NCBI GenBank assembly: GCA_021018995.1
Contig: CM037591.1
Coordinates: 66,615,901-66,679,900, forward strand
DNA: 64,000 bases
Origin: Chloranthus sessilifolius
Lineage: Eukaryota; Streptophyta; Magnoliopsida; Chloranthales; Chloranthaceae
Direction of reading: 5' to 3'
The translations under genes were made by a program, and so were the position numbers. This document shows positions 8,041-58,926 of this stretch, piece by piece. A model generated the notes under the pieces. That model was not told where the DNA came from, did not search any database, and saw only the letters and a program-made list of their open reading frames with translations. Each line of letters begins with the position of its first letter. The stretch's first letter is position 1.

Positions 8041-8510
8041 CGACTTGGACTTGAAATTGCAAGCTCGATCGGTCAAAATTCAAAGTCGACTGGACGAGAT
8101 TATATTTTAGTAAAAGAACTCTAGCCTCTGGTTGAACTCGACTGGTCGAAATCTAAATTTGACCGGTCGAGATTTAATTTTCTCTTTAGCGCCCTTCAGA
8201 AACATCGATCGATCGAAAATTCAAGATCGATCGATTTGATATAATTGGGGTTGAACTTCATGGTTAATATCGATCGATCGAAAGTCCAAAATCGATCGAT
8301 CGATTTTGTATTTTGGTTGCTTCCTATTTGGATAACTCGATCTGTCGAAATTCCATTTTCAACCAGTCGATGTTGAATTCCTTTCAGCCTTAATCAATCA
8401 TCTTGACCGGTCAAAACCTATTTTCGACCAGTCGAGATTATATTCTAATAAGGACTGTTGTCCTCTGTTTCATCTCGATCGATCGAGATCCATTTTCGAC
8501 TAGTCGAGAT
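8041..8510. repeat. Palindrome cluster in LTR F (TCGACCGGTCGA / TCGATCGATCGA types)
   Basis: About fourteen short palindromes of the form TCGA-YCRG-TCGA occur in roughly 470 bp of otherwise AT-rich DNA: TCGACCGGTCGA, TCGACTGGTCGA, TCGATCGATCGA, TCGACTAGTCGA. Several come in pairs separated by 10-15 nt whose joining DNA is itself partly self-complementary. Confidence 0.85.
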
Positions 8511-9843
8511 GGACAATTCATAACTGTTTTCCTTTCAAATGAGCTTTTCGAGTTTTTTTTCGCGGGACCTCCAATTTAAGCGAAATAAGAGTCGGTCTTA
8601 TAGTTTTTTGACCTTCCGGACAGGAATGTCAGTTACCCCCTTTAAGGCTCCTACAATCCTTGTATGGGCATGTGTGTCTCTTTAGGGTCCGAAATATGTC
8701 CAATCACTTTACCGATCAAATCATCAAGCACTTTGAACACAACAACCACCAATGAAGAGTAATTAGATTCAATCATAGAATAAACATAGTTAAATATTTC
8801 TTGTTCACTATTTTTATTCAATGCTTCATATCTTATGCTTCATATTAATTTTCTTCAAAAATATGAAATGCTTGGCGTATATGCTATAGTTTTTTTTTGA
8901 TATATGGTCACCATCATCATATGACATTCGTTATGTAAAAAATTAAGACAATATACGCATGATAAGTTAAGAATAAGATATGACACATGATATAATCCTT
9001 CGTCACGGTGAGATTTCTTTCACGTAAAACTTAGAATGTAGGCATCTATATACGATGCAATACCTCTATGATAGTATGGGATGCCATACGAAGTACATCC
9101 AGGTTACTATGGAACCCGTCGCTTAGGAAATGTAATTTAGTAAAGCCTATCGCACCGTGACCTATTCAAATTAAGTTTTAAGTAAAGATGATAAATAAAT
9201 ATGTTAAGAAAGTGAGAGCTTAAGCCCACGCAAATATAAAATCGGGGCAGAGTCCTAAGCCTATAACCGAATAATAATATAATATGATATGATATGACAT
9301 GTTGTGAAAGCCAGCTGAATATGAATTAAGTTCTATACGTGTTATACCTTACGAGCTACTGTAAGGGCTCAACATCTGCAGCCGAGATGGGTCTTAAAGA
9401 CAATATGTTAACTTTATTTCGAACTAAGGGGACATTATTGTTACGATGCGCGTAACCTCATTTGGCTGAATGATAGTTTATGTTATGATATGGAGGTTAG
9501 GTAGTGATCTACACGTGGACCTCGAGCAATGACCCTGACATGAGTCGTTTAATTATGATAAATAAGATACAAAATATGTTGTGTAGGTCTATGAAAAAGT
9601 AAGAAATAAAAGCATCATGCACATTTCATTCTATGTTATGCCTTTCAGTTTTGATATGACATGCTATGAGGTTTTGGATATTTTTGACATCATATAGTAA
9701 TGCTTGGTCTATTTCAAAATACACTGCAACTTAAGTGATTTTACACACGATCACCTAAGTAAGTTATGATAGATTGATTGTGTAACCCACTAAGTTTACG
9801 CGATTGAGTAAACTCACTCCCCTCGCAAATCTAACAGTTTTAG

Positions 9844-9926
9844 GTGAGGACTCCGATTATCCTGCCTATGATGATACGAAGGCAGTTGTATCGGAGGCGG
9901 CTTATGTAGATGAGGACGTCGATTAA
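9844..9926 (+). other. Conserved acidic exon of LTR F
   Basis: After an acceptor TTTTAG, two bases precede a frame EDSDYPAYDDTK ... VDEDVD followed by TAA. The position, two-base phase, DSDY core and early stop correspond to the acidic exons of LTRs A-E, although the C-terminal part is the most diverged. Confidence 0.55.
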
Positions 9927-10251
9927 GTCTCGGATGAGAGTATAGATCCGACAGATTTTTACGAGTCTTGAGAGGCCCTTTAGCTCTAGTTTTCTTTTAT
10001 TTCTTTTGAGAGACATATTTTAGTCTTTTGATACATCTTGTGAATTTATGTTTGGGACCATTTTATCCTACCTAAAACTTATTTTACTTTATGTCTTAGA
10101 TGCATGGTTAGGTTTTCGCCTTATGAATTATCGGTTATGCTTTTCGCTATTATTTATGAGTTGTTTATCATTAAATGCAATATTAAAAGTCTCGGTCTTA
10201 TTGTCTATGTTGAGAAATGGATTGTATGTATGCTCGCTTATTGTCTTAACA

Positions 10252-10517
10252 ACCGTGCAGTGTCATAACACAAAGGGCACCATAGTGAAATCTGCTATAA
10301 AATGGGTTATTGTGGACAAGTCCTAGAAGGGGCGACCTGGGGAAGGAGCTCCTTGGGGTCCTATAAAACGGGTATCAAAGTGAAAGTCACCACATAGTTG
10401 GCCGTGATGGACGTCAATAGTGGAGGGTGGTAGTATGTTGTTATCTCAATGTAAAATGGGTTTTGCTTCCTTTTCATTAACGCCTACACATTTTTGGTAT
10501 ATTAGTTAGGTCCTTAA
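10252..10517 (+). mobile_element. Internal remnant and start of a second LTR of the F element
   Basis: A purine-rich GGAGGGTGG tract at about 10421-10430 is followed at 10436 by TGTTGTTATCTC. The next ~75 bp are homologous to the beginning of LTR F at 7211 (GGGTTTTGCTTCCTTTTCAT versus GGGCTTTGCTTTCCTCTTCA). This fits polypurine tract plus 3' LTR start, with almost the entire coding interior deleted. The Copia element then inserts at 10518. No continuation was recognised beyond 18850. Confidence 0.45.
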
Positions 10518-11012
10518 TATTGCGTGAAAGCTCTCAAATTAACCAATGATCTCATAATGAACGATCAAATAAGAGGAAATCAAACACAATCACATAAGAA
10601 ATTTTTTACGTAGTTCAGAAATTTGCCTACGGCCACGGGTAGCGATGCTTTATTATTTCGATGATTTGCAAGAATACAAGAACACTCAGTCTCACAAAGC
10701 TCTCTACAAAATCCTAATTAGGTTTACCAAAGCTTTCTCTCAAGTTTTCGAAACTCTAGAAATGCCCAGGAGTTTTCTTTTATAGAAAACCTAAAATTGG
10801 ATGTCTAAATCAAGTCAACATGGAATTCCCATGCGTTTGCTTCTCGCTCGGGCGGACGAAACAATCCAAACTAGTCCATTCTGGCCGCTCAGGCAAAATT
10901 GGCTTCTCCCGGGTGACTCGAGCACCTTTTTTCTCTTTTCCTTTAGCTAATCTCACTTGGGCGAGATTGCATCTCGCTTGGGTGAAATTTAAGTTAGAGC
11001 CCAACAATAACA
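10518..11012 (-). repeat. 3' LTR of the Copia element
   Basis: 495 bp, homologous to the outer parts of 17448-18845. It contains palindrome-like GCTCGGGCGG / CTCCCGGGTG motifs at 10843-10985. It preserves the empty site (TTAGGTTTACC) for the CACTA insertion seen in the other LTR. On the minus strand it starts TGTTATTGTTGGG, preceded by the purine tract CAGGTAGAGAA. Confidence 0.92.
10843..10985. repeat. Palindrome cluster in the Copia 3' LTR (GCTCGGGCGA type)
   Basis: Motifs CTCGCTCGGGCGG, CCGCTCAGGC, CTCCCGGGTGACTCGAG, CTTGGGCGAG and CTCGCTTGGGTGA are imperfect versions of a CGCTCGGGCGAG palindrome. The sister LTR carries better-preserved copies at 18678-18775. Confidence 0.7.
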
Positions 11013-11773
11013 TTCTCTACCTGGCTTTAAGCTTCACCATGTACTCTATCCATCAATCATCCTTAAACCGTATTACCATTACCATCAGCACCCAGAGGAC
11101 GCTCAAACCTGCTAAACATTGATCAAGTTCAAAAAATACTTATCTTGACCACCAAATAATGCTTAGACTTGACCATCGATACTACCTTTGTCATCATATT
11201 CGCATGATTGTCATTCGTACTCATATTCTTCAAAGATATCTCGCCATCTTTGATTACTTCTCGTATGAAGTGATATTGTATATCAATGCGTTTGATACGA
11301 GCATGATATATGTGATTTTTTGCTAAGTAAATAGAACTCTGGCTATCGCAGAATACATCAACACTTTCATGTACGATCTCCAAATCACTAACTATGCCCT
11401 AAAGCCACAATGCTTCTTTCACTGCCTCGCTTACTACCTTATACTCTGCCTCTATAGTAGACAAAGCCACAATATCATGTAGCATCGACCTCCAGCTGTG
11501 ACGACCCGACTTTTCCAATCCCTCAGGTATAGGAAAGGCCGGTTCACCAAGCTGGATAAACATAGCACATATCAGAGTAAAGCGCAATAATTATCCATAG
11601 CTAAAATAAATGCAGAAGTAATTAAAAGTAAAGAACCACCGATGATGGCCGACCATCATCGAAACATGGCTCATAATAGAAATCAACGTCAAGTATAAAA
11701 CTATAATATCCAACTAAAATGGGCCCACAAATTCAAGTCTAACTCTCACCACAAGTAAGAAAATCAGTAAGTT

Positions 11774-11874
11774 CTATACTGGAAAAAACTTCTCAGGAAG
11801 AACCTCAGGTTCTTCCTCAGGCACGTAGTCAGGATCAGTCTCACAGCCCTGAACAGCCACGTCGGTACCTGGAC
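11774..11874 (-). other. Conserved acidic exon of LTR A
   Basis: After an acceptor GTCACAG and a two-base phase, the frame includes CETDPDYVPEEEPEVLPEKF and ends FPV-stop. It corresponds in position, phase and composition to the exons in LTRs B, C, D and F. Confidence 0.7.
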
Positions 11875-12856
11875 CTGTGACATATAGTCGGAGTGAGCTA
11901 ACCAACAAAGCTCAGTAGAAGAAAGACATCTACGGCATTTTACTTTAATTAACATAGTTTCAAAACAAATACCGGAATATAGCTTGTCAAACATATAAGC
12001 AGATAATAAACTGAATTTAGGTGCGAAAATCATATGTAAGATTTATTTCTAAATGTGTGAAAACAGTTTCAAGAACAGATGCAGTGTTTCAGTGTCTTAG
12101 TTTTTCTAACTTCTATATGCAAAGTTCAGTAATTCATGACTTAACCCTCAACTTAAAATACCTCCCGAGTAAATTATATCTCGAGAGCAGGAATATAGCC
12201 GATGGGAACTCCTACCTACCATCATCGTTCATGAACCCTTTTTCAGGATGCAACAAGCCCCTACACTCAGAGGGTAACTTGCGCCAGGAAGTTGTTCAGG
12301 AATTTTGAGGGGTCGTTCAGACGAATCGTAAAATAGATGCAGATAAATATCATTTGGATGCAAGTTTCTTATACATAGTTTTGATTTTAGATTTTAGATT
12401 TCGGAGTTCAGGCAAATTCTGATTTTCAGAGTTTATATCAGGTTTTCGGTTTACAGATGTATTTTCAGATGATAGATGCAAGTTCAAAATCTAATACAAA
12501 TTATCCATGTGAAGTTATGCGAAGTCAAGCAAGGTCCTATTGATGGCCTCTCGCCCTCAATCTACATCACAAATATACGTTCATGCATTAAGATTAACTC
12601 TAATCACTAATAATATAGACCTATTTAAATGTTTCCTCAAAACAAGTCAAAACAGGCAAGTTTCGCCAATCCTAGAATTTGATGTAACCTTCTCATACAT
12701 TTTTGACCATCAAGACGATTGATTCACGAGTTGATCAAAACAGGAAAGTTGTAGATTTTTTTGTTAGCTTTTCAACGCAAAAAGAATCATCTCAATCGGA
12801 GTTTACAGTAAAAGGTTATGACTAAAATACCAAGATAGTGTCGGAGTTCGGCGATA

Positions 12857-13048
12857 CCTCGCTCGAGCGATTAAAATAGCTCACTCGAGAGGTTAAAATA
12901 GCTCGCTCGAGCGAGGTCCTTCAGAAATTTCTCGCTTGAGCGATGACTTAAGCTCGTTCGAGTGAGGACAGAGTATATATGACTTCTAAAGTCAACCTTT
13001 TGGTGCATCCTCGCTCAAGTGATTAAAATAGCTCGCTCGAGCGAGCAA
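12857..13048. repeat. Palindrome cluster in LTR A (CGCTCGAGCG type)
   Basis: Seven copies or near-copies of GCTCGCTCGAGCGAGC occur, several linked by ATTAAAATA at a spacing of about 25 nt. The cluster starts about 146 nt downstream (minus strand) of the predicted donor. Confidence 0.88.
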
Positions 13049-16000
13049 TAGCGACAACGAGAATTCTGAGTTTTAGAACTCGATTCAGATTGCGATTCTC
13101 GCCCAGTTTTCACTCGAATCGATACATATCCATCCCAAAACAAAACCCATGGCTAATCTAATGATTTTAATCAATAAATTTAATCAAAATGTACCTTTAG
13201 TGTAAGGATTCCTTGATTAGAAACAAGTCATGCGAACGGGGCTTCGGAGCGAAACCGGCGGGTTTCCTCAACGATTTGCGCCGCAATCGATCCCACGAGT
13301 TCACAGAGACAACTCCAACACGTCCCCAATGATCTCAACCTCTCGCAATAGCCAACTACGAATCCAAGATTGATTCAAGTTCTTTCTAAGGTTCAAGGGT
13401 TTTCAACAAAGAGGGTTCTAAAGGAGGAGGTTTTCTAAACCGATCTCCTACGATGATTGAAGAAGAGAGAAGACGGAGTTTCGCACGGTTGGGTAACTAT
13501 CAAACGGCTGCGGTTCTTCACGGCACTCACGTCTCTTCCTCTCTTAACAAAACCTAGTATAATACGGGAATGCAATTCCTTCTTATAATAGGATTGCTGA
13601 CAAAGTTAAGCACACACACACCTTTTGTGTGTTATACACTTCTAATTTTAAAACTCAAGTCCGGTGTTGAGCGGCCACATCGAGGTCGGTGCACAACTTT
13701 CGCACGAGGGTCCAAATGGGCTTTAAATCAGAATCTGTCTGCACAATCACATCTAGATAAAAATTCAAAACAAATGGCGACATCGGTCGCCGAGCCAAAT
13801 ACACACACGGGGTAAGTCTAACTCGGGTTCAAAATACCGGTCTTTACACCAACTAATCAGATCACATGATAGCATAAATACATATCCCGTTGTAGACCAA
13901 CGCTTATCCAAATCACTCACGCAATATGAATCTGCGTAATCGCATAACTGATGATCTGTACCACTGTGAAAAACCAACCTGACATCTATGGTACCGTATG
14001 TGTACCTCATAATTCATTTCACCGTTTGTCAATGGTCCTTACCTGGATTAGCCATATACCTGTTAACCACGCTAACGGTCTGGGAAATATTTGGTTGAGT
14101 GCACCATATAGCATACATCAAGCTACCAAATACACTCGCATAGGAAACACTAGTCATATACTCATGCTCCTCATCTGTAATAGGAGACATGCCAGTCGAA
14201 AGATGTAAGTAAGTTGCCAATGGAGTATTCACCGCCTTTGAGTTCTCCATCCCATATCGTGAGAGTACATTCTCCAGATAAGCTCTATTGTTAGACATAA
14301 CTGACATTTTTTTCTGTCTCTCTGAATCTTCATCCTAATAATCTTTCTCACTGCACTAAGATCCTTCATTTTAAACTCTATAGCAAGTTGGGATTTAATT
14401 TTCTTGATCTCCACCATGCTCTTTGCAGCTATGAGCATGTCACCAACATACAAAAAAAGATAAATATACGAGCTATTTGCTAACCTTTTGAAGTAAGCAC
14501 AGTTGTCATATTCACTTTGAATGTAATTTTAACTCATCCTGAATATGTCAAACCTCTTGTACCACTGTCTCGACGACTGCTTTAACCCATACAAGGACTT
14601 CTTCAGTTTGCATACTAACATCTCTTCTCCTAGAGATTTTCAGGTTGATTCATATAGATATCTTCCTCCAAATCATCGTGTAGAAATATTGTTTTCACAT
14701 CAAGTTGCTCAAACTCTAAGTCCAACTGTGCTACAATTGACAACAAAACTCGGATTGAAGTATGTTTCACAACTGGTGAGAACACCTCACTGTAATCAAC
14801 TCCTTCCTTTTGCATATAGCCGTTAGCTACCAACAGTGCCTTGTACCACTACTTTTTGGAGAACTCTCTTTCTTCTTATAAACTTGCACCCAATTGCTCT
14901 TTTACTCTTAAGTAACTCTGTTAGTTCCCAAGTTTGATTCTTGTAAAGAGAATTCATCTCTTCACTCATTGCAACCTTCTATTCTTGTGCGCATCTTCCA
15001 CTGATTGCACCCTTGAATGAAGACGACTCATTTCCATTCAACATCAATGCGTACGTAATCATATCTTTGTAACCATAGAGCATTGGTGCTCTAGCATTCC
15101 TTTTGGGTCTTCCACCCACTAAGGATTACTCTAGCTCTCTCTCAACTATTTCTACACTTAAAATTTCTACACCTTTTTTCTGATGTAGTAACTGTAGGAG
15201 TTTCTAACTCCACCTCAAACTGATCTTTCGCTACCTCTCTAATTTTCATGCTCTATTTGCTAGAAGTTCACATAACATATTCATCAAATGTCACATCTCT
15301 ACTGATCACAATCTTATTCTGCTCGGGATACCATAATCTGTATTATTTCACGCCATTTATATACCCTAAGAAAGTCGCCTTCTTAGCTCTTGGGTCAATT
15401 TTATTATCTCTAACATGATAGTAAGTTGTGCAACCAAAGACCCCCAATGGACTATAATCTGCCGGATTTCCTGACCACACCTTAATCAGATTCTTGCGCT
15501 CTATTGTCATAGACGGTGATCTGTTTACCAGATAGCACGATGTATTAACTGCCTCAGCCTAGAACTCTCTATCCAATCCGCATTGAATTACATACATCTT
15601 GCATTTTCAACTAAAATTTTATTCATGAGTTTTGCTACCTCATTTTGCTACGGTATATTCCTCACTATGAAGTGTCTAGCAACATCTTTCTTTTCATAAA
15701 ACTCTTGGAATTGTCTACTTGTGTACTCACTATTATTATCAGCTCTCAACTACTTGACCTTCCTTCCAATCTAGTTCTCAAATAGTATCTTCCACCTCTT
15801 GAAGATTCTTAACACCTCATCGTTACTCTTCATCATATAGATCCATGTATATCTAGAGTAATCATTGATGAAGAAAATAAAATATCTAACACCACCTTTC
15901 GAAGGAACCTTAGAATGCCCCATATATCTGAATGTATATAATCCAATGTCTTTCATAGTGTGAACCATTGTGTTGAACTTAACCTTGCACTATTTCTTGA

Positions 16001-18556: not shown

Positions 18557-18850
18557 TAGGTTTACCAAAGCTTTCTCTCAAAATTTCGGAACTCTAGAAA
18601 CGTATAGGAGTTTTCCTTTTATAGAAAACCCAAAAACGGACGTGTAAACCAAGTCAACATAAAATTCCAGTGCGAAACTCGCTCGGGCGAGTTTGGATCT
18701 AGCTCGAGTGGGTAAGACGACCCAAACTAGTCCATTTTGGCCACTCGGGCGAAATTAGCTTTGCCCGGGCGACCCAAGCACCTTTTTTCTCTTTGCCTTT
18801 AGCCAATCTTACTTGGAGAGATTAAGTTAGAGCCCAACAATAACACTTAA

Positions 18851-19724: not shown

Positions 19725-19977
19725 TTACTGAGAATTTTGAAGTTGGTTGTTGTTAAAAAGGACTCTGGGCTTCCCCATGCTGAAGTTGAGGACCCTAGCA
19801 TTCATGTTGTATTTGATCTCCCCATCATATAACATCTTCCGGATGTAGTGCTCGATATCTGAACCTATCAAACGAAGTGTGTATTCTGTCAACGCCGCCC
19901 CCTGTCTTCAATCCATCAATATCCATCCATATATGACAATAATTGCAAACAAAAAACCATCACAACTATTATATATG

Positions 19978-20034
<57 letters not shown>

Positions 20035-27121: not shown

Positions 27122-27930
27122 TGTAACATCCTGAAAATTTTGAACCTGAATGCACCCGACCATGTGTGCGTGTCCGACATGACGACCAATGCCACCTTAA
27201 ACTTTTAGAATAAATAATTAATAAAAGTATAACATGTGTGAAAAGTGAGGTTGAAACTCATTTTTGGCCTTTAGTGAAGGAACCGTGCACTGACGCACGG
27301 CATGTGGGCGTAACACCAAATAAACCACATGTGTTAAAGTGGATAAGACCAACTGAAATAAATATATAGGATATTTGTCTTGTTTAGTTGTAAGAAAAGA
27401 AAAGAGAGAGAGAGCTCTCAATACCTTCACCACACCTCTTCTCAAACCCTCTCGTGAGATCCAACGCAGCAACCGCTCCGCAAGCTTCGTCTTCTTCGCA
27501 AATAAGGTTTTGCCTTTATCGCAAGAACTCTGCCTTCTTGTTGATTCCAACAGCAAGAAATCTTCTAAGTGTGATATCATTTGGATTGAGGAGAGAATGG
27601 AAGAGTGTCGTCGAGCTAGCTCGAATCGGCCATCGTAAGCGAGGGTGCGTGATTCAAAGGCGAAGATCAGTTAGTACTAGTGTGGAGCTTCATTTGATCT
27701 TGATCGCCGTAGAACGCCGCTGGCTTGACTTCAAAACCCTCTTTTCGATAGCGATCATGGCAAGCCGTGTGAACAACCGAGAAAGGTGAGCATCTTAGCG
27801 TTATCACTTGATATTGTTGTCTCTAAGCTTAGATCGATGAATGTATGATATTTGATTTGAATCATGAGAATTTGGGGCAAAATAGACCAAGGAAGAAGAA
27901 GCCTGAATGGGCTGCTAAGTCTGTCAAAAC

Positions 27931-28045
27931 TGCTCGAGTGAAATGAAACCGCTCGAGCGGATTTGACAGAACGTAGAAGTGTAAAAATTCTGGAGAAACC
28001 GCTCAAGCGGTTTGATATGCCTTGGAAAATCGCTCGAGCGATTTT
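27931..28045. repeat. Palindrome cluster in LTR B (CCGCTCGAGCGG type)
   Basis: Four copies: TGCTCGAGTG, ACCGCTCGAGCGG, ACCGCTCAAGCGGT and AATCGCTCGAGCGATT. The first lies 145 nt downstream of the predicted donor at 27786, almost exactly the distance seen in LTR A. Confidence 0.85.
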
Positions 28046-28560
28046 CCCTGTTGATGAGTCATGTTGTTTTGTCCTTAGGAAAGGTTTGGGAATGTTTGAA
28101 TCATTCGATGTCTTTGTTATTGACATGTAGTATGTGATCTTAATATGACTTAGGTCTAGAACGGGAGACCATTGAAAAAGGAACTATCGTATTATTTTGA
28201 ACGGTACCAAACCTAAGGTAGGGAAAACTCAATACCCAACTCTCGTTTCTTGATTATGATTCATACACCCCATGACATCATCAATGTGAATTCGAACATG
28301 AAATTGCATATGAAATTCTAGTAGTAACTCACGGGTGCTTCGAACTATCGATTTCCGAAAATGATTATTGCATGATAAATTGAATGTTAGAACTTTGAAC
28401 TATGACCCATTGAAATTGACTATTGATTTTGAATCTTTGAAATTATGAATGTGGAATCATCGAACTCTGAATTTAGTTACATGTTACAACTCTGAATCAA
28501 GCATTGTATGTTAGTATTGTATGATAATTTAAGGTTATGTGAACGAATCCCCCACACTAT

Positions 28561-32173: not shown

Positions 32174-33638
32174 TAATTGCTACTTATATGTGTATCTAAT
32201 AAGTCTTAACCTATTGCAGGCACACAATAAAAATTATAGAGCTAGTATAGGATCGTTCCCATGAAAAAGTTATTATCTTATTTATATTTATATTTCAAAG
32301 TTTATATTTATCTTTTAAGGTTCTAAACTACTGGAGAAATATGAATAAAGAATGAGTTTTTAATTTAAAATGTATAAAATAAATCCTAATCCTCCTTCTT
32401 CAGATTGATGTCGTCAATCCTAATCTTCAGCCATCGGATATTTATAAAAATAAATAGTACCGTTACACCGTATTGCAGTCTTTTAGAATTTGGACATCAA
32501 TCAAAACCTAAAATTTCTTAACACAGATTTAATCTAATAAACAATCTCTTAAAATCTGGGCGTCAATCAAATTCTAGAAAATTGAAGATAGAAAAGTAAA
32601 AATCGTTACACTAATCTGTAAACTTCAACTTGAGTCATCAATTCAAATTAAAATTCGAAGATGTTTACAAAGCATATAAATAAAGCAAATAAAATCTAAA
32701 CTAGAAAGCAAAGTAAATATATCTTTCACCCCTCAGCTACAGTCGTCAATTGCTTTTGAGAAACTACGATATCTACACTAATCTTCAGCATCCAATAATA
32801 GTCATCAATTGCTCTTGAGAAACCTTTGATATCTAATTTACAAAGTAATAAAAATATATTCTAATTTTTTATCAAAAGAAAACCCAACCTCAGTCGTCAA
32901 TGATGCTGAGAATTTCTTTAATGGTTTATTCCTACACCGGGGCCTGTTATTTATAGATCATAAGGGGTCGGTTTACAAGACTTCTAATTCTAATAAAAGA
33001 AACTACTAAAGTAAAAGTATCCAACTATAATTATAATTCTTAATTTTATCCTTCCTTGCTTTCAAACTGTAGATGTGTTTCGGCTTTATTTCCTTGATAA
33101 TAGTAGCAAAGATCTTTGAAGTTTATCTTCATCAATCTTCTCAGATCCGTAATTCACCAAACTTCTAATTCTATGCATATCGGTGGTAGTTTTCACATGA
33201 TTAGCAGTAACAGTTCAGTAGTAGAGAAGCTTTTCTTTTGCACAATCGTAAACTACGATTGTCTGTTTTCTTTTCTTTTGCGGAAAATCATAAATCATGA
33301 TTTTCTAGCTTCTCCTATTATGACGATAATTACGATTTTTCTTACGATTGCTTGCTTTTTCTTCTTGTTTTATTTTCAATTTTAGAGAATTGTAAATTAC
33401 GATTTTTTATTTCTCTACTTCATCAATGCTCAATCGTCTTTTACGATTTTCTAGCTTTCAACGTATAGTGAATCGTCTTCTTACGCTAAATCTCTTTTTA
33501 TTATTCTTTGAGTTCATTTTGATGAATATTAGCACTTTGTCTCTCTTTTACTATTTTTCCTTAATATCTCCACAACGTTAACTTGTTAGTAGTAAACTAA
33601 GTTAAGGGTTATAAAATGGTAAATTATGTGATTGATCA
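32174..33638 (-). repeat. 3' LTR of Athila-like element #1
   Basis: 1465 bp, clearly homologous to 38415-39886 throughout, with scattered substitutions and small indels. The palindrome cluster is at 33241-33480. Confidence 0.92.
33241..33480. repeat. Palindrome cluster in Athila #1 3' LTR (AATCGTA-TACGATT type)
   Basis: Copies include AATCGTAAACTACGATT, AAATCATAAATCATGATTT, TTGTAAATTACGATT and CAATCGTCTTTTACGATTTT. They are arms of ATCGTA/TACGAT around a 3-6 nt spacer. The homologous cluster in the other LTR is 39481-39720. Confidence 0.8.
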
Positions 33639-38414: not shown

Positions 38415-39886
38415 TGATCGCTACTTATATGTGTATCTAATTAAGTCTTAACCTATTGCAAGCGCACAATGGAAATTGTAGAGCTAGTATAGGATTGTTC
38501 CCATGAAGAAGTTATTATCTTATCTATATTTCTATTTTAAAGTTTATATTTATCTTTTAAGGTTCTAAACTACTGGAGAAATATGAATAAAGAATGAGTT
38601 TTTAATCTAAAATGCATAAAATAAATCCTAATCCTCCTTCAGATTGAGGTTATCAATCTCAATCTTCAGCCATCGGATATTTATAAAAATAAACAATACT
38701 GTTATATCATATTGCAGTCTTCTAAAATTTGGGTGTCAATCAAAAACTATAATTTCTTAACACAGATTTAATTTAATCAACAATTTTCTAAATTCTGAGG
38801 GTCAATCAAATTCTATAAAATTGAAGATGGAAAAGTAAAAACCGTTACACTAATCTGTAAACTTCAACCTGAGTCATCAATTCAAATCAAAATTCGAAGA
38901 TGTTTACAAAGCATATAAATAAAGCAAATAAAATCTAAACTAGAAAACAAAGTAAATATATCTTTTACCCCTCAGCTACAGTCGTTAATTACTTTTGAGA
39001 AACTAGGATATCTACACTAATCTTCAGCATCCAATAGCAGTCGTCAATTACTCTTGAGAAACCTCTGATATCTAATCTACAAAACAATAAAAATCTACTC
39101 TAATTTTTTATCATAAGAAAATCCAACCTCAGTCGTCAATTGATGCTAAGAATTTTTTTGATGGTTTATTCCTACACTGGGCCCACTTATTTATAGATCA
39201 TAAGGGGTTGGTTTACAAGACTTCTAATTCTAATAAAAGAAATTACTAAAGTAAAAGTATCCTAATATAATTCTAATTCCTAATTTTATTCTTCCTTACT
39301 TTCAAACTGTAGATGTGCTTCGACTTTATTTCCTTGGTAATAACAGCAAAGATCTTCGGAGTTTATCTTCATCAATCTTCTCAGATCCGTAATTCACCAA
39401 ACTTCTAATTCTATGCATGTCGGTGGTAGTTTTCACATGATTAGCAGTAACATTTCAGTAGTAGAGAAGCTTTTCTTTTGCACAATCGTAAACTATGATT
39501 ATCTGTTTTCTTCTCTTTTTGGGAAAATCGTAAACCACGATTTTCTAGCTTCTCCTATTATGACGATAATTACGATTTTTCTTACGATTGCTTGCTTTTT
39601 CTTCTTGTTTTGCTTCCGCTTATAGAGAATCGTAAATTATAATTTTTTATTTCTTTACTTCATCAACGCTCAATCGTCTTTTACGATTTTCTAGCTTTCA
39701 ATGTATAGCGAATTGCCTTCTTACGTTAAATAATCTTTTTACTGCTCATTTTGATGAATATTAGCACTTTGTCTCTCTTTTACTATTTTTCCTTAATATC
39801 TGCGCATCGTTAACTTGTTAGTAGCAAACTAAGTTCTAGCATCACTAAGTTTAGAGTGATAAAATAATAAATTATGTGACTGATCA
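38415..39886 (-). repeat. 5' LTR of Athila-like element #1
   Basis: 1472 bp. On the minus strand it begins TGATCAGTCACAT and ends TAGCGATCA, immediately followed by the tRNA-Asp-type primer binding site. The palindrome cluster is at 39481-39720. Confidence 0.92.
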
Positions 39887-43404: not shown

Positions 43405-43635
43405 CCTCGTCGCGGCGAGTCTACATGTTGCCGTGGAGAGCTCTTCAGGGTGCCATATGACAAGGGCATCTCACCGCGGCGAAGCGACAAGCCATAAGCC
43501 AATCTCGCCGCGGCGAGATTTTCCATTGCCGAAATGGCCTGGGTTTCAAGGCAGCACTCGCCGTGGCGAGCGCTTCAGGTGAGCCATAACTGATTCTAGG
43601 GCAGCAGTCACCGCGGCGAGCCATAACTGCTCGCC
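43405..43635. repeat. Palindrome cluster in LTR C (CTCGCCGCGGCGAG type)
   Basis: Copies include CTCGTCGCGGCGAG, TTGCCGTGGAGAG, CTCACCGCGGCGA, TCTCGCCGCGGCGAGA, CTCGCCGTGGCGAG and TCACCGCGGCGAG. The differences from the perfect palindrome are mostly C-to-T or G-to-A at CpG. Confidence 0.85.
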
Positions 43636-48450: not shown

Positions 48451-48685
48451 AGAATCACGATCATATGAAGATATATTCCCAATCGCGATTGACACTAGTG
48501 CAAGTCAAAAGACAGAGTTATGATACAATCGTAACCACGAGCGAACGTAACCAAAAGAAGAAAAAGAAGGAATCATAAGTCATGATCCTATACAAAAGAC
48601 TCTCAAGCACGAAAGGAACACACAATTGAACGTAAAGAATGAAGAATCATACTGAAGAAAAGAAGTAATCGTATTCACGATTGTA
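48451..48685. repeat. Palindrome cluster in Athila #2 LTR (AATCGTA-CACGATT type)
   Basis: Copies include AATCACGATCATATG, AATCGCGATT, CAATCGTAACCACGA, AATCATAAGTCATGATC and AATCGTATTCACGATTG. It is the same motif class as in Athila #1. Confidence 0.75.
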
Positions 48686-49921: not shown

Positions 49922-51738
49922 CATGGCTATGCAAGTCCCTAATGAAATACCCAACTGCCCCTTGTATCGAGACATAATAGAAATAGAGCAAGCTTTTGTA
50001 TCTCAGTGGGGTAGTTATGGGAATTCTTATAATCCTTAGTGGGGAAACTATTCTGGCTTTCTAAGGCTAACGCAACAAGAATTATCTTATACATACCCAC
50101 AATATCCTCAGAATGACCAATAGATATATGCCTCGTATCAATCTTTTGAACAATAGCTTAGTCCTCAAACTTGAAACGATGATGCTACTATCGTCTAGAT
50201 CCTCCAAGATCTACAACAACAGGCGCACCAGCGTTTTAGGGAATTATCACAACTTACCAAATCTCTCGAGATTTACATTCTTGCACTCAATCCATTACGA
50301 ATCTAGAAACCCAAATTGGGCAACTAGCTACGCAATGGATGGAAGGAGAAAGTAGCCAAGCGTGTTCACAATCTGTGAACAACTTGGGAGGACAAGTTCA
50401 TGAGGGAAATACACCAATTTCCACAATACACATCCAAGCTGTTCAAACCTTAAGAAGTGTCAGAACTATTAATAATAGGGTAGAGATGCCTACTCTAGTA
50501 ATCACCCCTGAGATCAAGAAAAAAGAGCATGAAGCCATAGAAGAAGTTCCATCGCTAGAAAAATTTTAAAAATTAGAAAATGAAAAACAAAAAAATAATA
50601 ATGACAGTGCACCTAACTCTGTAACAGAAGTACCATATGTACCTAAGTTATCCTTTCCAAACACTTTCGGTGCACCGTCTTCCTTTGATCAAAATCCCAA
50701 AAAATTAGAAGAAATTACTGAAATTTCAAGGAAGTGAAGATTAATTTCCCCCTCCTGGAGGCAATCAAACAAGTTCCAGCTTACGCATATTTTTTGAAAG
50801 AAATGTGCATGCAGAAGTGAAATGGCGGAATAATATCTCACAAAAAGTCTTCTTAACAGAGTAAGTGAGCTCGGTTCTGCAAGCCAAAACTCCACCTAAG
50901 CTCAAAGATCCCGCAGTACCGACAATTCCGTGTATTATTGGTGACCACTCCATTAGTAAGGCACTCTTAGATCTGCGAGCTAGTGTGAATCTACTGCCAC
51001 ACTCAGTATATGAGAAACTGAGACTAGCTAATATGAGGCCTATGTCAGTAACTCTTCAGTTAGCCGATAGATCGGAAAGAAGGCCGGTAGGAATCATCGA
51101 AGATTTCATGGTTGGGGTCGACAAGTTTGTCTTCCCTGTCGATTTCCTAGTATTAGACATGGAGCAAAGTTTGAAATCTCCAACATAAATTCCCGTCATA
51201 CTCGGCAGACCATTCTTGGCCACAGCCATTACCTGTATAAATTGTAAAATTGGTGTGATGGAAGTCGCTTTTGGGGATATGCGGATTCAGTTAAATGTCT
51301 TCTCAACAACCAATTAGATGACTTCGATTGATAATGAAGAATTCTTCAGCATAGATGAGATTGAAGAAATGGTAGAAGAAGCATTGCCTCTAGCTTTATC
51401 CAAGGATGCGCTTCAAACTACATTATGGTATTAGGACTTGGGAGAATTTGAGCAGCAATATGAGGAGGTGACCTATGTACTGGACACTTCTTCCCATGAG
51501 TCCCAGTTAAGAACTTGGAAGCCATGGATAGAACTCTAACCACCACTTCCAATGAAACACTGCTACCATCTATTGAAAAAGCACCCACCTTGGATCTGAA
51601 ACCACTTCCCGACACCCTTAAGTACGCTTTTCTTGGGCCCAACAAAACTTTTCCAGTAATCATTTCTTCTGCCATCATTGTAAATTAGGAGAGTAAGCTA
51701 TTGGCCATTCTTATGAAGCATAAGTGTGTGATAGGATG
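49922..51738 (+). pseudogene. Athila gag C-terminus, aspartic protease and RT start, with stops
   Basis: The gag tail is at about 49922-50560 with several stops. The protease open frame 50865-51188 contains PPKLKDPAVPTIPCIIGDHS, the active-site block DLRASVNLLP (the usual DLGAS has lost its glycine) and VDKFVFPVDF. It continues after a stop with ILGRPFLATA at about 51200. At 51590-51738, frames resembling the LKPLPDTLKYAFLG and PVIIS blocks mark the RT N-terminus, which is interrupted. The glycine loss and the stops make it inactive. Confidence 0.88.
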
Positions 51739-51739
51739 G

Positions 51740-53299
51740 TGTGCAACCATGGGCTCTCGTGAGTCCGTCACGATGATGCGCTTTTTACTATAAATTTAGA
51801 GTCGCCACCCGGAGCTTTTGGTGTCCCGGGATACCCAAATCAATATGATGAGTACCAAAGTGCTAAAAATATGACTCAGATCTGGTTTACGCCAAAGGCT
51901 CTTTGGTAGGGGCTTCGGTTATCGATCGGGAAGGTGTTAGGCACCTGGCCAACCTACTCGTAAGCGGTTTCTACTTATAGCCAAAAGAAAAAAATAATAA
52001 AAATAAAGATAAAACAACACTTCCTCTTGCCCGAAGGCACTCCGATCCTAATTACGCCCATCGCAATCACTGAAATTTCGGTGGCGTAACGGTGCAAATT
52101 CAAGCATAGAGGAAAGGCAAAGAAGGTAGAGGAATAGAGGGGAGAGCCAGAGCTCTCGGGCCCTTATAGCACAACTGTGGTCCTTCGCGTGAGGGCACTT
52201 CGGGAGCTTTCGATAGCTAGAGAGGTTGGAAGATGGGTTCTAACCTCTAAGGCTTAGTAGCTAAGGGGTAGAGGAAGGAGGCTAGGGGGTAGATCTCACC
52301 TAGGCTAAAGGATTTATAGTGGAAGATGGGATCTAAAGGATGGTTTTGAATTCTAGAATTTGTATAGATTTGGTGCACCAAAGGGGAGAAGGGGATCTCT
52401 TAATCTTTTTTGTTTTCTTGGAAAATTTTCAAACCTTTGTAAAGGGAGGGGTGTCTTTCTATTTATAGAAAATGAGAGGGTTAGGAGGGTACTTAAGAGC
52501 TAATAGGATTAGCAATTAGGTAATCCTAAATCTAAGGTTTTTGAGTTTTTTAAGGTCATGGATAGGTGTGAGAATAAGTTCAATGGTAGTTGATAGGATG
52601 GGGTTTCAAATGACTAGGGGATTGTAAATAGGGTAAATTGGGGTGCAACAGTCCTAAAGAAACCCATCCTAAATATAGGGATGGTCAACAAGTTAAACCC
52701 CAAAAGTGAAATTCAGACAAAATCTCACAGTTATTGTAGCTAAGCCTAACATGTATATTATACATGCTAGGCATATGTACAGTGCCTGTGAGAAGTTCAG
52801 AGCCCGCTGTGGAGCCCATTTGGCTTAGCGTGCATGTATATTATACACGCTAGGCCAAATTCTTCCAAAAAATGGCCTAGCGTGTATATTATACACGCTA
52901 AGCAAAATTCCTTCAGAAGTGACCTAGCGTGTATATTATACACGCTAGGCAAAATGCCCCACCTCAGGCCGAGACTTCGGATAGTTATAACTTTTGGTGT
53001 ATGACTCATAATCGGATGATTCTTGGCTCGTTGGAAAGCTTGGGACCTCTATATTCCAATGGTGCCTAATTTAGTTCCAGTAGAGGTCCCAGTGATTCTC
53101 AGTACACCTCTCTCTAACCATTACCTGGGAGGGTTCAAATAGGTCTGGGGAGGGGCTCTATAGGTTAGGGTTGATTCCTGAGGGTTTTTACGGGTTTGGG
53201 TTGGGTTCTAAGGGTTCGGGAAGTGCTATTGAAAGCTCGAGGGTGCACCTTTCTTGAAGTATGTTTTGATTTGGCCTTGGGCCAAATTGGGTGTCTACA
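51740..53299 (-). mobile_element. LTR H of a Tat-like gypsy element
   Basis: On the minus strand it starts TGTAGACACCCAATTTGG at 53299, directly after a purine tract CCAAAGAGGGGCATC (53314-53300), and ends GGTTGCACA at 51740. The segment TTTAGAGTCGCCACCCGG and CGGGAAGGTGTTAGGCACC (about 51795-51940) is a widely conserved block of this LTR class. It holds a cluster of stem-loops at 52744-52950. The left flank GATGG could be one half of the target duplication; the right half was not found because the element is truncated. Confidence 0.75.
52744..52950. repeat. Stem-loop cluster in LTR H (13-bp arms)
   Basis: Four copies of an inverted repeat with arms GCCTAGCGTGTAT and ATACACGCTAGGC around ATT occur at 52744-52772, 52823-52855 (arm shifted), 52875-52903 and 52923-52950. 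The last two are 48 bp apart. Three more copies are at 54019-54135. Confidence 0.92.
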
Positions 53300-54137
53300 G
53301 ATGCCCCTCTTTGGTATCCAATCACTAATGATTGAATCCCAAAGAAAAAAAGACATCCGAAGAGGCTCAAGGAACGCTAACGGGGGTCCGCTATATTCAA
53401 AGCAAAACTCAAACATCAAATGGTAACGTGGTGAGTATACGGAAGCCCTGTATGTCGGGAAAAAATATTTGTTCCTTAAGGCTATCGGTCCCCAAGCATT
53501 TACCGACATTACTAGGCATGACCGAGATGGTGCGAGTTGCGAAAGCCCAATGTGTTGGGAAAAATATCCGCTCCTCGATATGATTTGATGAGGTGTAATG
53601 TTTGATTTTTATTATGAATAAAACAACCCATGAGTGGGGGGGGGGGGGTAGACCCATACCTAAAAACTGGCATGATACCAAAACGCGAAGATCCACAGTC
53701 TGTGTCCAATCGCATGAGGCATTGATTGCCCCATTTGATTGGTCACAAGTGCCCCTACTCGAGGTAAGGTTTGAGGTCTCTGAGTGACCTCATTGATCCC
53801 GACAATAATTTAGCACTACTACCCGAATGAAGTGAATTAATGTCGCAACATTTTTTGGGAGTGTGTGCTGCTGGTTCTTCTATTTTTTTCTTTTCTTTTT
53901 TTGCTTTCTCCTCCTCTTTTTTTTTAATATATATTATTATTATTTTTTTTTTTTAGGGGTTACACCTACGTATGCACCTAAAGAAGAAGGAACACACATG
54001 TGTGTAAGGGAGGATTAAGCCTAGCGTGTATATTATACACGCTAGGCCAAATCTGGCGGATTTATGCCTAGCCTGTATATTATACACGCTAGGCCAAATC
54101 TGGCAATATTTAGCCTAGTGTGTATATTATACATGTT
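53300..54137 (-). mobile_element. 3' interior of the Tat-like element H
   Basis: It is untranslated DNA upstream of the purine tract, with a poly-G run at 53637-53648 and a G/C-rich GTGCCCCTACTCGAGGTAAG block. Three more stem-loops at 54019-54047, 54066-54094 and 54113-54135 (47-bp spacing) close it. It ends abruptly against the gag start of element D. No coding domain was seen. Confidence 0.5.
54019..54135. repeat. Second stem-loop cluster of element H
   Basis: Three copies of the 13-bp-arm stem-loop of LTR H; the third has lost part of one arm at the breakpoint. The spacing of 47 bp equals that in the LTR. Confidence 0.88.
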
Positions 54138-54598: not shown

Positions 54599-55322
54599 GA
54601 AACTCGTGCCATCAGCACGACCCTTGAAGCCGTGCCCCATAAACCTGCACAGAACATTAATATATCCAAGCACAATAAAGAATAAGAAATGAATTTAACA
54701 AGATCTCCCATGCATTAATGATATATTATTATATAATAAAAGCTCAAAAGGCAGTTTTCATTCCATGCCAACGCATGGACAAAAGAACTGGCCCAAATCA
54801 TTGGTGATAAAACCAGGTCACCCCAGATGGTTCGCCAAAAGAAATATCAGAGTATAATTGCATTTTTCTCAAAAAGGGCTTGACATACCAAGCCGTACAG
54901 AATGCTCTCAAAAATCTCTCTAAAAGTACGCAGCGGTCCTCTAGAAGAAGTCCTCAGGAGGAAACTCGTGCCATCAACACGACCCTTGAGGCCGTGCCCC
55001 ATAAACCTGCACGGAATATTAATATATCCAAGCACAATAAAGAATAAGAAATGAATTCAACAAGACCTCCCATGCATTAATGATATATTATTATATAATA
55101 AAAGCTCAAAAGGCAGTTCTCATTCCATGCCAACGCATGGACAAAAGAACCAGCCCAAATCATTGGTGATAAAACCAGGTCACCTCAGATGGTTCACCAA
55201 AAGAAATATCAGAGTATAATTGTATTTTTCTCAAAAAGGGCTTGACATACCAAGCCGTATAGAATGCTCTCAAAAATCTCTCTAAAAGTACGCAGCGGTC
55301 CTCTAGAAGAAGTCCTCAGGAG
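54599..55322. repeat. 362-bp tandem duplication at the 3' end of LTR D
   Basis: Copy one, 54599-54960, and copy two, 54961-55322, are about 97% alike. They both start GAAACTCGTGCCATCA and end within the acidic exon (GAAGTCCTCAGGAGG). The duplication therefore repeats the exon's terminus and the R/U5-like tail of the LTR. Confidence 0.93.
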
Positions 55323-55406
55323 GAGGCTCCAACTCTTCCCCGGGCACGTAATCCGAATCCTTCGGATCTACATCTCCTGAACCCTCAGTAGCCATAAGCA
55401 CGGGAC
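55303..55406 (-). other. Conserved acidic exon of LTR D
   Basis: An acceptor ACGTTGCAG and two bases precede a frame with GSGDVDPKDSDYVPGEELEP, ending EDFF-stop. It has the same phase as A, B, C and F. Confidence 0.7.
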
Positions 55407-57110
55407 CTGCAACGTATAGTCTAAAGGGTGAGCTACATCCTAGCTCAATAGAGAAATAACACAATGAACATATAAGTCAAGTTCTCACATATATTCTATG
55501 ACATTAAACAGCATGAGGTATTAATGAATTTACTGGAAAAATATCAGTTTAAATGACTGAAAAATGAATGTACTAAGTATTACTGTTATTTCACATGTTC
55601 TCATTTGTTCTCAACCTTTCACTGATTCGACCTAAAGACTTAAATTTGTAACTTAAATATTTTCTAACTTACTATAGAGTCGGGCGCCCGATGGAATACC
55701 CTCCATCGTCGTCTAAATAGACAGTTTTCATATCACTATTCTCATTCATCAATTATACCCAGGTCCCTCTCTCATAGGCGACGGGGTCTAATTCTCATAT
55801 CAACGTCCCTGGGATGTGCAACTGGTGTACGGATTGGCCGCCGTACCGGTCACGAATATCCTGCCACATCAGTCGTGGGTATCCCGTCACGTCGGTGGAG
55901 TATTCTCCAGAACCTTAAATAATAAAAGTATCAAGTGCACTATATATAGTTATTTACCGTGTGATTGTGCTAAATATAATAGATTAGGCCTTATCAGTTT
56001 TCATTCATTCTTGCTTTACAATTTCATATACATCCCTGCGATGCCTAAATCAATGCATCACATAGATGCCTTTATTACATTCTCATCTCCTGGGGATGCC
56101 ACATATTCACTTGCTTACTTGTGTCACACACACACATTTACTGATTCACATTTACTATGCATTTATTTTTATTTCTATGCCACTACATACATGCTCTTGA
56201 AATTTAAAATACATGTTCAAGGTGTTCCCTACCTCAAAGCAAAGCTATCATTTAACGCATTGCCATTCCCTAGGAAATCAAACGCATCTAACACACGCTA
56301 AACCTACATTGTATGTGCCAAAGATACCCTCAGAAAAGTCCCTAAGAATCTTCGGATGTAATATCCCTGATATTTTTGGCATATTTTCGTTTACCTCGGT
56401 AAGCGTGCCCGAAAAATACTGTAGAATATTTTTGGACTTTTGGTAAGCTAAGGCTATGATAAGACTAATGGCCAAAGGATTTAGTCTCGAGAGATGTGCA
56501 AGTCATAAAATCAATGACTTACACTATTGGGTTAGTGTTGGTGGTTAACACTAGATATGTTCTCAACTTAAAGGGATAAGTTGTAAAATTTAAATATCTA
56601 GATTTTGTATGCTTTGTTTATATATTATAAAGAGAGTTTAGAGAAAATACACTTCTCTCTTTCGGTTGGAAAACAAATAGGAAACATTTTGGGCTGCATG
56701 TGATCTTTAGATCTTGGAAGTTTTAGAGTTCCTCTCTCCATCTCAACCATTGATTAGAGTAGTGCCTAAATTCTGATCAGTTTGAATTAATGGAAAGAGA
56801 AGAGTGATGTGGAGAGGGTGAAAAATCTGTGTGATTTTGTTGAGTGAAGTGGCTGTAACCACCCTTCTTTTTGGACTGATTTGAAGATCTAAAACCATTG
56901 AGCTTGGAGATCTTTTCCGGACGTGAATCGGTTCAAAGAAAGCAACGAATTAAGCTACAAGAGGTATGCCTTAAAACCTCCTTATGCAAATTTGTTTGAT
57001 TTTTGTTAAGAATGTAAGTTTTGAATCCAATAGAAATGATGGTATGGCTGTGTAGAAAATAAGAAAAAGAATCCGAGCATGTTAAAAATTTACAGCCACA
57101 GTACCTGAGA

Positions 57111-57288
57111 AAATCGACCATCGATTTCCAAAATCGACTGTCGAAATTGGAAATCGACTGTCGAATTGGAAATCGACAAATAAAAATGATTTTAGTTTAA
57201 CAGATTCAAATTCGATGGACGAATTTCAAATCGACCATCAAATTTCAAATTCGACCATCGAATTTGAAATCGATGGTCGAATTCATCG
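57111..57288. repeat. Palindrome cluster in LTR E (TCGACCATCGA type)
   Basis: Eight or nine copies of TCGA-3 nt-TCGA flanked by AAAT/ATTT: AAATCGACCATCGATTT, AATCGACTGTCGAAATT, AATTCGACCATCGAATTT, AATCGATGGTCGAATT. The cluster begins 149 nt after the predicted donor. Confidence 0.88.
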
Positions 57289-58179
57289 CTTTTAATTTTT
57301 GATTGGATTTTTTGTTTTATGAGCCTTTGGATTAATTTTTGGGTTGTATATTAACACTTAGGGTGTTAATATATGTAGGTTTTGGTCAATTGGGAGTCCT
57401 TGGAGAGGATTGCTTATGCATGCCTTTGAATTGTCTTGGTTAAGGTAGGGGAATCCAAACTATTATTTGCATAAATTATAAGCATAAACAGTCATAAATC
57501 AGGTTATTTTTAGAAGCATGAAATATAGAAAATTCATTACACACGGTGAAATTAAAACTTTGAACATATGATATAATCCGAAAATTGCAAACCTTGTCAT
57601 AAAGAAGAATCATTGGAAATCGAACTTGATTAAATTTGAATCGAGAACCTCGCTTAACTTTTGAATCGTAACCTCGTTAACCCGAATCGAACTTTGAAAA
57701 TCGATATGATATGAATAATAAGCTTGGATATGTGTTAGCATTTGCATTTGATTTTGGGTTCATAAGTACGATGCCCTAGATTCCAACGTGTTGTGAGTAA
57801 AACTTTGGCAAAGTTTCCCTCATAGCGTAGGGGCTTGTTGCATTTTCAAAATGGGTTCATGAACGACGATGGTCAGTAGGGTCTTCCCATCGGTCACGTA
57901 GTCTGCTCTCATGCTATAGGAAATTTGGGAGATAAAATTAAGTTATAAATTTAAGACAAGAAGCATGCTAAATCAGAACATTTTGAACACTTTAGATTTT
58001 ATGATCAGTTTTTGACTCAGGATTAGAACTGGAGATTTAATTTGAAAAGCATCATTGAAAAACCATATTTGATTCGATTCCGTCTTTTGAAAAACTTTTA
58101 CTTATAAGAAATGCAAATAGACCTGTCTTCCCTTATTGAGCTTGGTCATAGCTCACCTCGACTATACGTCTGTCTTGAG

Positions 58180-58266
58180 ACCGATTTGGGATCTGAGGAT
58201 TTGGAGGATTCTGATTATATTCCTGAGGAGGAATTAGACTTGCCTGCTGAGGAGTTCTTCCCTTGA
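58180..58266 (+). other. Acidic frame of LTR E
   Basis: After a degenerate acceptor (TCTTGAG) comes a frame GSEDLEDSDYIPEEELDLPA, ending EEFFP-stop. Unlike the other copies, the apparent exon start is in phase 0, probably because of an indel or a mutated acceptor. Confidence 0.6.
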
Positions 58267-58662
58267 CCTTTAGATCCTGTATTTTGGTATTTTGTCTGAA
58301 TATTGTTTTGAATATTGGGCCCTAGGCCTTATTTTGTTCTTTTTGATATCACTCGAGGAACCATTATTGTGAACCTCTATTTTAGGTGATCGGATTGGCC
58401 ATCACCGGTGGTTCTTTTTGGTTCCTCACAGTGATATATCTAATTTTGTTATATGAAACATTTGTTTTTGGATTAACAATGTTGCCTCTGTCTTTAGACC
58501 TTTGTTTATGTTGCCGGCTTCTGTTTGTTACGGCTTATTGAGAAATCAATAAGTTGATGAACCGGCCTTTCCTATACCTTAGGGATTGGAAAAGTCGGGT
58601 CGTCACATCGGAACTATAGCTTCCAAGAATAATAAAAAATAAAGTAAAATTCTATGTAATAT

Positions 58663-58926
58663 CTTGCGCAAGCGAGCACTATTAATCGCTCGAGCGATTA
58701 CTCAACCTCGCTCGAGCGATCATAAACGAGGCTCCTACTATCGCGCGAGCGATTATAAACGAGGCCTTTTAACTTCACACGATGCTCGCTCGAGCGATCT
58801 TCCTCTTCACAAAGTTTCTCTCTCATGCGAGGCCAGAACTTTTTCTCTTATATATTTTGTCCTTCCTTGCTCGAGCGAGCTATTTTAACCGCTCGAGCGA
58901 GGAGCGATGACAGTAATTGCTCGATC
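58663..58926. repeat. Palindrome cluster in LTR D (CGCTCGAGCG type)
   Basis: About eight copies: CTTGCGCAAGCGAG, ATCGCTCGAGCGATT, CCTCGCTCGAGCGAT, ATCGCGCGAGCGATT, GCTCGCTCGAGCGAT, GCTCGAGCGAGC, CCGCTCGAGCGAGG. The motif equals that of LTR A and is close to that of LTR B. Confidence 0.88.

What the first reader, a model, noticed from the sequence alone, without database searches (positions are those of the whole stretch)
8041..58926. Unrelated LTR retrotransposons all carry clusters of short palindromes, each family with its own motif
Clusters of 4 to about 14 short palindromes occur in LTRs of Tekay-like gypsy (A-F), Athila-like gypsy (#1, #2, #3), a Tat-like gypsy (H) and Copia. The motifs are: A, B, D CGCTCGAGCG; C CGCCGCGGCG; F and #3 TCGACCGGTCGA; E TCGA-N3-TCGA; #1 and #2 AATCGTA...TACGATT; Copia GCTCGGGCGA; H arms of 13 bp around ATT. 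The arrangement (repeated at 20-50 nt, in AT-rich DNA, within the LTR) is shared, but the sequence is not. Shared descent cannot explain this across lineages. Inference: selection or a copying process repeatedly installs palindrome clusters, perhaps as dimer-binding sites, RNA hairpins, methylation targets, or recombination/dimerisation signals. I know of no standard LTR annotation for it.
Basis: partly seen in the sequence, partly recalled or inferred. Interest (0 to 1): 0.92.

Follow-up and report, generated by a model that had tools for sequence, protein, structure and literature searches.

The report
Palindrome arrays in plant retrotransposon LTRs
Several families of plant jumping genes in this stretch carry, inside the repeats that control them, clusters of short mirror-image DNA motifs; this was described before for one lineage (Sireviruses), and seeing it in gypsy-type families too hints at a common way in which these elements build their control regions.

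Summary
Clusters of repeated short dyads sit in LTRs of Tekay-like gypsy (A–F), Athila-type gypsy (two LTRs, a third weakly) and one Copia element. Corrections: TCGACCGGTCGA does not occur exactly; the third Athila LTR carries the Athila motif; and the motifs are not wholly unlike, since TCG…CGA half-sites 5–7 nt apart occur in every array but H. In LTRs A–E the array lies at one place, 1.33–1.77 kb before the LTR end, so shared descent explains position there, while motif and linkers change. A and D share an exact 22-nt module in opposite orientation. Of 57 spacings, 40 are 19–23 or 39–48 nt. The same kind of feature is published for Sirevirus LTRs (PMC2829016). Best reading: arrays of dyad-symmetric binding sites acting as LTR control modules. 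Presence in Ty3/gypsy LTRs, and a place downstream of the TATA-like box in Tekay-like LTRs, are the new parts. No other plant genome could be searched. Function is inferred.

The parts
8065..8507 (+). Array F: 14 dyads TCGA-N4-TCGA (some imperfect) in 7 diverged ~67-nt pair-units, in a Tekay-like LTR (TATA-like 7605; PBS-like sequence 10371, name recalled)
10844..10985 (-). Copia array in the 3' LTR 10518-11012, upstream of TATA-like 10785
18679..18772 (-). Copia array in the 5' LTR 17448-18845, upstream of TATA-like 18624 (LTR interrupted by inverted-repeat insertion)
12859..13046 (-). Array A: 7 units around TCGCTCGAGCGA (3 exact), Tekay-like LTR ending at 11497
27930..28043 (+). Array B: 4 units around CGCTCGAGCG (2 exact) in solo LTR 27122-29493, TSD ATCTT
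33244..33448 (-). Athila LTR 1 array, 4 dyads AATCGT..ACGATT, upstream of TATA-like 32956
39484..39688 (-). Athila LTR 2 array, 4 dyads, upstream of TATA-like 39196
43407..43619 (-). Array C: 6 units around CTCGCCGCGGCGAG (1 exact core), Tekay-like LTR ending near 41846
48528..48683 (+). Third Athila LTR: 3 weak dyads of the Athila motif, upstream of TATA-like 48961
52744..54135 (.). H: two arrays (52744-52950 and 54013-54135) of large palindromes around TATATTATA, period 47; lineage and orientation not resolved
57114..57280 (+). Array E: 7 units TCGA-N3-TCGA (5 exact) in solo LTR 56357-58607, TSD TCGGA, inserted in the LTR that holds D
58664..58928 (-). Array D: 8 units around TCGCTCGAGCGA, LTR ending ~54573 and split by solo LTR E

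Best explanation
These are arrays of dyad-symmetric, CpG-bearing DNA sites that act as regulatory modules of the LTR (binding sites for dimeric host DNA-binding proteins). They grow by short tandem duplication and are rebuilt by exchange between their own palindromic units, so a lineage keeps an array at its own place while motif, linkers and copy number drift. Shown here: the arrays, their place in the LTRs, the spacings, tandem structure, the loss of alignable sequence in the array between A and E, and the inverted A/D module. Inferred: protein binding, effect on transcription, selection for symmetry.
For: Position is kept within a lineage: 1327-1773 nt before the LTR end in A-E (ends of C and D approximate); upstream of a TATA-like box in both Copia and all three Athila LTRs. 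In F's seven repeat units palindrome arms are 0.90/0.89 identical, centres 0.60/0.50, intra-pair linkers 0.64, inter-pair linkers 0.40, although the arms hold CpG, which decays fast in methylated DNA (established knowledge). Between Athila LTRs 2 and 3 dyads are 36/63 identical (57%), array linkers 86/185 (46%). Of 57 adjacent centre spacings 24 are 19-23 nt and 16 are 39-48 nt; best period about 22 (flat from 21 to 23), reached by none of 2000 uniform-spacing nulls. Palindromy runs through the centre in the best units of A-D and F, which a hairpin loop would not need; in F the outer centre pair covaries (Fisher p=0.021, counts made by eye). Imperfect pairs in sense orientation are 26 G-T and 40 A-C (p=0.11): no sense-RNA bias. 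CpG o/e is 0.82-2.84 in 12 clusters against 0.69 in the window. Published analogue: PMC2829016.
Against: No binding, expression, methylation or small-RNA data. In Tekay-like E and F the array lies downstream of the TATA-like box, so the promoter-upstream model does not carry over directly. The Athila array is less alike between LTRs 2 and 3 than the rest of the aligned stretch (287/406, 71%), and two of four LTR 2 dyads have no dyad in LTR 3, as plain decay would also give. The spacing test treats tandem-duplicated units as independent and used a hand-edited unit list; ordinary tandem repeats here also often have periods of 18-25. The arm-versus-linker contrast in F is partly built in, because units were cut at their palindromes. 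About three independent lineages sharing TCG...CGA could be coincidence among CpG-bearing palindromes. No factor is named; PMC2829016 found no single one for Sireviruses either.
Confidence: 0.46

Rival explanations
1. Mutational origin: palindromes promote template switching and slippage in reverse transcription or replication, so short palindromic repeats multiply and are perfected without benefit to the element.
For: F, E, H and part of A are tandem. An exact 22-nt module is shared by A and D in opposite orientation; with linkers shuffled the longest shared string is 18 in 400 trials. Pairs outside the core are complementary more often than in column shuffles: 283 of 608 vs 263+-8.6, p=0.013, carried by A/B/D (p=0.003) and E (p=0.026). 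The array drops out of the A/E alignment although the LTR downstream is 61% identical.
Against: Arms stay more alike than linkers in F. Position is kept across diverged Tekay-like LTRs. Outer-arm covariation is not seen in F, Copia, Athila and H (p 0.34 to 1.0) and is marginal in C (0.085).
Confidence: 0.25
2. RNA hairpins: the arrays fold in LTR transcripts and act in genomic RNA (dimerisation, packaging) or are processed to small RNAs that target silencing.
For: Sense-strand folding z is -4.0 to -8.5 for A-F, -5.4 for the 5' Copia array, -2.9 for Athila LTR 1, and -9 to -11 for H on either strand. Maize Sirevirus palindromes are small-RNA hotspots (passages in PMC5311732 and PMC10760457).
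Against: Sense folding is weak in Athila LTR 2 (z -1.75) and unremarkable in the 3' Copia array and Athila LTR 3 (27 of 100 shuffles as low, each); in all three Athila LTRs the antisense strand folds better (-6.0, -4.2, -1.1). No G-U excess in sense. Any DNA palindrome folds on both strands, so folding does not separate DNA from RNA roles. [quoted passage not shown]
Confidence: 0.21
3. Chance: AT-rich decaying DNA with scattered CpG palindromes, picked out by eye.
For: Some listed units are poor (Copia: 29 of 54 pairs Watson-Crick); three unlisted clusters appear in the unbiased scan; 8 of 25 high-scoring windows lie outside the arrays.
Against: 10 clusters vs mean 1.8, maximum 4 in 40 shuffles; TCG-N6-CGA 32 vs 5.3; motif counts per cluster.
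Confidence: 0.03

Closest known systems
Sirevirus LTR repeated motif (RM), Bousios et al. 2010, PMC2829016
   Same: Several copies of a short palindrome per LTR (3-14 in their 3' LTRs, 3-14 here), mostly a consensus of its own per element, CpG-rich, diverged flanks, upstream of TATA; one listed motif (Tnd-1, ACAATCGATTGT) has a TCG/CGA arm
   Different: Reported there as Sirevirus-specific among the Copia elements studied, with a CGG-CCG core in all but Tnd-1. Here also in Ty3/gypsy LTRs, with TCG-CGA arms, and in Tekay-like E and F downstream of the TATA-like box
[quoted passage not shown] 2016, not held; seen only through passages of PMC5311732 and PMC10760457)
   Same: Palindrome-rich, variable LTR region
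   Different: Small-RNA link reported there, untested here; the maize survey saw no obvious peak in Ty3 elements
Repeated regulatory boxes of Tnt1/Tto1 LTRs (recalled; PMC2829016 mentions Tnt1 box I)
   Same: Short repeated elements in the LTR acting in transcription control
   Different: Fewer copies, Copia only (recalled); no sequence comparison made here, and the one search for them found no paper

Membership tests
Sirevirus RM arrays | Short palindrome repeated in one LTR, 3-14 copies (3' LTR column of Table 3, PMC2829016) | tested here: met
   Units per LTR: F 14, D 8, A 7, E 7, C 6, Copia 5 and 4, B 4, Athila 4, 4 and 3, imperfect units counted
Sirevirus RM arrays | At least 8 copies in the whole element | not testable with these tools
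   B and E are solo LTRs and no complete Tekay-like element was delimited
Sirevirus RM arrays | CGG-CCG core (12 of 13 elements there) | tested here: not met
   The enriched dyads are TCG-CGA and CGC-GCG
Sirevirus RM arrays | Lies in the LTR upstream of TATA | tested here: inconclusive
   Met in two Copia and three Athila LTRs; not in Tekay-like E and F, where TATA-like boxes at 56625 and 7605 precede the array
Sirevirus RM arrays | Host element is a Sirevirus (Copia) | tested here: not met
   The Athila-type element has Retrotrans_gag and the third LTR is followed by an aspartyl-protease ORF with many plant relatives (Pfam match below its cut-off). Tekay-like rests on recalled termini. The Copia element was not placed in a lineage
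CpG-rich LTR array | CpG enrichment over surroundings | tested here: met
   o/e 0.82-2.84 in 12 clusters vs 0.69 for the window; partly implied by the motifs themselves
Small-RNA generating palindromes | Small RNAs map to the palindromes | not testable with these tools
   No small-RNA data available

The most novel reading that the evidence does not exclude
A common LTR control grammar: dyads with TCG/CGA half-sites 5-7 nt apart, set about two or four helical turns apart, read by one family of host proteins and reached independently by Tekay, Athila and Copia LTRs, with array modules that flip or pass between LTRs in either orientation.
Probability: 0.15. Interest if true: 0.8.

Novelty: new variant of a known kind. 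Interest (0 to 1): 0.48.

Why it matters
Palindromic motif arrays were reported as a mark of one Copia genus. If Ty3/gypsy LTRs of other plants build the same kind of array, LTR control regions share a way of evolving (duplicate, flip, replace) that conventional alignment misses, and the arrays become natural test pieces for how host factors and silencing recognise retrotransposons.

Tried and rejected

Other species: viral contigs gave nothing for two DNA patterns, and no confirmed relative for the Copia fragment (6 stretches matched a pattern) or the protease alignment (79 stretches). Genome contigs gave 10 matches, all with bacterial titles, not examined further. The Copia gag fragment found no relatives (62 candidates).

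Ideas that failed or were weakened: sense-RNA selection by G·U excess; dyad conservation across Athila LTRs (57% vs 46% in linkers, below 71% elsewhere); outer-arm covariation in F, Copia, Athila and H. In checking I gave up two claims: that Athila dyads sit mostly at new positions (two of three in LTR 3 align with dyads of LTR 2), and that the motif contradicts the LTR tree (one ancestral motif kept in A, B and D and replaced in C and E fits as well). I lowered the best explanation from 0.50 to 0.46 and the novel case from 0.17 to 0.15 for that.

Literature: motif strings as search words returned 148 papers; the 30 listed all hold one 12-mer and are off the subject (probably hairpin-vector loops, my reading). 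That I saw no report for Ty3/gypsy LTRs rests in an open-licence library only; Bousios 2016 is not held.
Full report
What the window is. Plant nuclear DNA: a U3 snoRNA match at 30437–30638 and an NdhM-like ORF at 19919–20473 whose listed named matches are flowering plants; the best match is an unnamed transcript, 81% identical over 72% of the ORF. The species was not determined. Much of the window is nested retrotransposons.

The elements. The Copia element runs 10518–18845 on the minus strand, flanked by CTTAA on both sides, with RVT_2 in 14232–14528 and Pol_BBD and gag domains in 16202–17066. Its 5' LTR is interrupted by an inverted-repeat insertion, and the Tekay-like LTR A lies inside the element. 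B (27122–29493, duplication ATCTT) and E (56357–58607, TCGGA) are solo LTRs with perfect target duplications. E sits inside the LTR that holds D. Downstream of the array, 9 of the 10 pairs among A–E give local alignments of 56–62% identity; B–D gives none above 40 bits, and F gives none with any. F is Tekay-like only by layout and by a primer-site-like sequence (10371). The Athila-type element has LTRs 32176–33603 and 38417–39835 (90.9% identical) with a Ty3-type gag piece between them (PF03732); a third related LTR from about 48290 (66% identical) is followed by an ORF (50865–51185) with 425 database relatives, some annotated PF13650, its own Pfam match being below the cut-off. The names Tekay and Athila rest on recalled terminal and primer-site features plus these domains.

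Are the clusters real? Yes, with corrections. Global counts, clusters of like dyads and per-array motif counts exceed dinucleotide shuffles; arms for the last test were chosen from the arrays. A motif-blind sliding scan (637 windows) puts 17 of its 25 windows with z>4 in D, F, A, H, B or E, and 8 elsewhere; Athila and Copia arrays are not among the 45 listed, and C reaches 3.2. They stand out by a repeated motif, not by palindrome density. The third Athila LTR is weak (11 of 500 shuffles reach its count).

What the clusters share. Of 640 dyad types, TCG-N6-CGA, TCG-N2-CGA and CGC-N4-GCG stand out once TAT/ATA repeats are set aside. Exact TCG-N6-CGA: F 9, A 4, D 4, C 3, B 1, one in each Copia array, and two in Athila LTR 3 (48529, 48669); E has six with N5, Athila LTRs 1 and 2 two each with N7. 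Nine lie outside the 12 clusters scored, the two of Athila LTR 3 among them. H differs. As the Tekay-like LTRs are related, this is about three independent lineages, and coincidence is possible. Adjacent spacings gather at 19–23 (24 of 57) and 39–48 (16 of 57); tandem duplication makes them non-independent and other tandem repeats here have similar periods, so helical phasing is a lead, not a result.

How the arrays evolve. In A–E the array lies 1327–1773 nt before the LTR end, so position is inherited. A and E are the closest pair (61% over 1056 columns), and a tree sets them apart from B, C, D and F (97% support; other nodes 40 and 67; F is hardly alignable), yet A has the motif of B and D, and E another one. 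The simplest reading is one ancestral motif, replaced as a whole in E and in C. A and D share an exact 22-nt module, palindrome half plus linker, in opposite orientation relative to their LTRs; with linkers shuffled, 0 of 400 trials reach 22 (longest 18). Palindromes are direct and inverted repeats at once, so flipping of linkers between units is a natural explanation (inference). F consists of seven diverged ~67-nt units with two dyads each; arms are 0.9 identical, inter-pair linkers 0.4. In Athila the array is less alike between LTRs 2 and 3 than the rest of the aligned stretch; two of the three LTR 3 dyads align with LTR 2 dyads, one off by about a base, and two of the four LTR 2 dyads have no dyad in LTR 3. 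That is inheritance with decay, with at most one gain.

DNA or RNA? A–F, H and the 5' Copia array fold strongly as RNA on both strands; the Athila arrays fold better in antisense, and the 3' Copia array and Athila LTR 3 are near chance in sense. Sense transcripts show no preference for G·U over A·C imperfections (26 vs 40, p=0.11). Palindromy continues through the centre in the best units of A–D and F. These points lean to a DNA-level role without excluding RNA. In Copia and Athila LTRs the array is upstream of a TATA-like box. In E it starts about 490 nt and in F about 460 nt downstream of one, so there it would work from within the transcribed LTR. TATA boxes for A, B, C and D were judged by eye and are uncertain.

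Prior art. Bousios et al. 2010 (PMC2829016; passages and sections 9 and 19 seen) describe in 13 Sireviruses a palindromic repeated motif, mostly different in each, in the LTR upstream of TATA, forming CpG islands, and call it Sirevirus-specific. Passages of PMC5311732 and PMC10760457 report that maize Sirevirus palindromes attract small RNAs, that the region is variable, and that maize Ty3 elements generally lacked an obvious structure peak. I saw no report for Ty3/gypsy LTRs in the searches named under Tried and rejected. The finding extends a known kind of feature.

Verdict. The feature is real and worth a genome-wide check. 'Unrelated sequences' and 'shared descent cannot explain' need softening. 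Function remains inferred.

Noticed in passing
701-1200: Dense palindromes (ACCGATACGTATCGGT-like) inside a foldback whose ends read about GGTCAAACCATGGGTCAAAA and its complement (by eye); possibly a small inverted-repeat transposon.
   Followed up: partly
1108-1402: Repeated TCAA-N3/4-TTGA dyads, a cluster found by the unbiased scan and not in the finding.
   Followed up: no
17448-18845: The Copia LTR carries a ~740-nt inverted-repeat insertion that seems to lie within another insertion beginning CACTACAAAAAAT (by eye).
   Followed up: partly
54599-55324: A 362-nt tandem duplication, 96% identical, within the LTR that holds array D.
   Followed up: no
30437-30638: Plant U3 snoRNA match just above the gathering score (80.8 vs 80).
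   Followed up: no
27786 and 56964 (+); 13194 (-): Splice-donor-like GT sites precede the arrays in Tekay-like LTRs B, E and A (by eye; letters checked); a possible intron holding the array.
   Followed up: no
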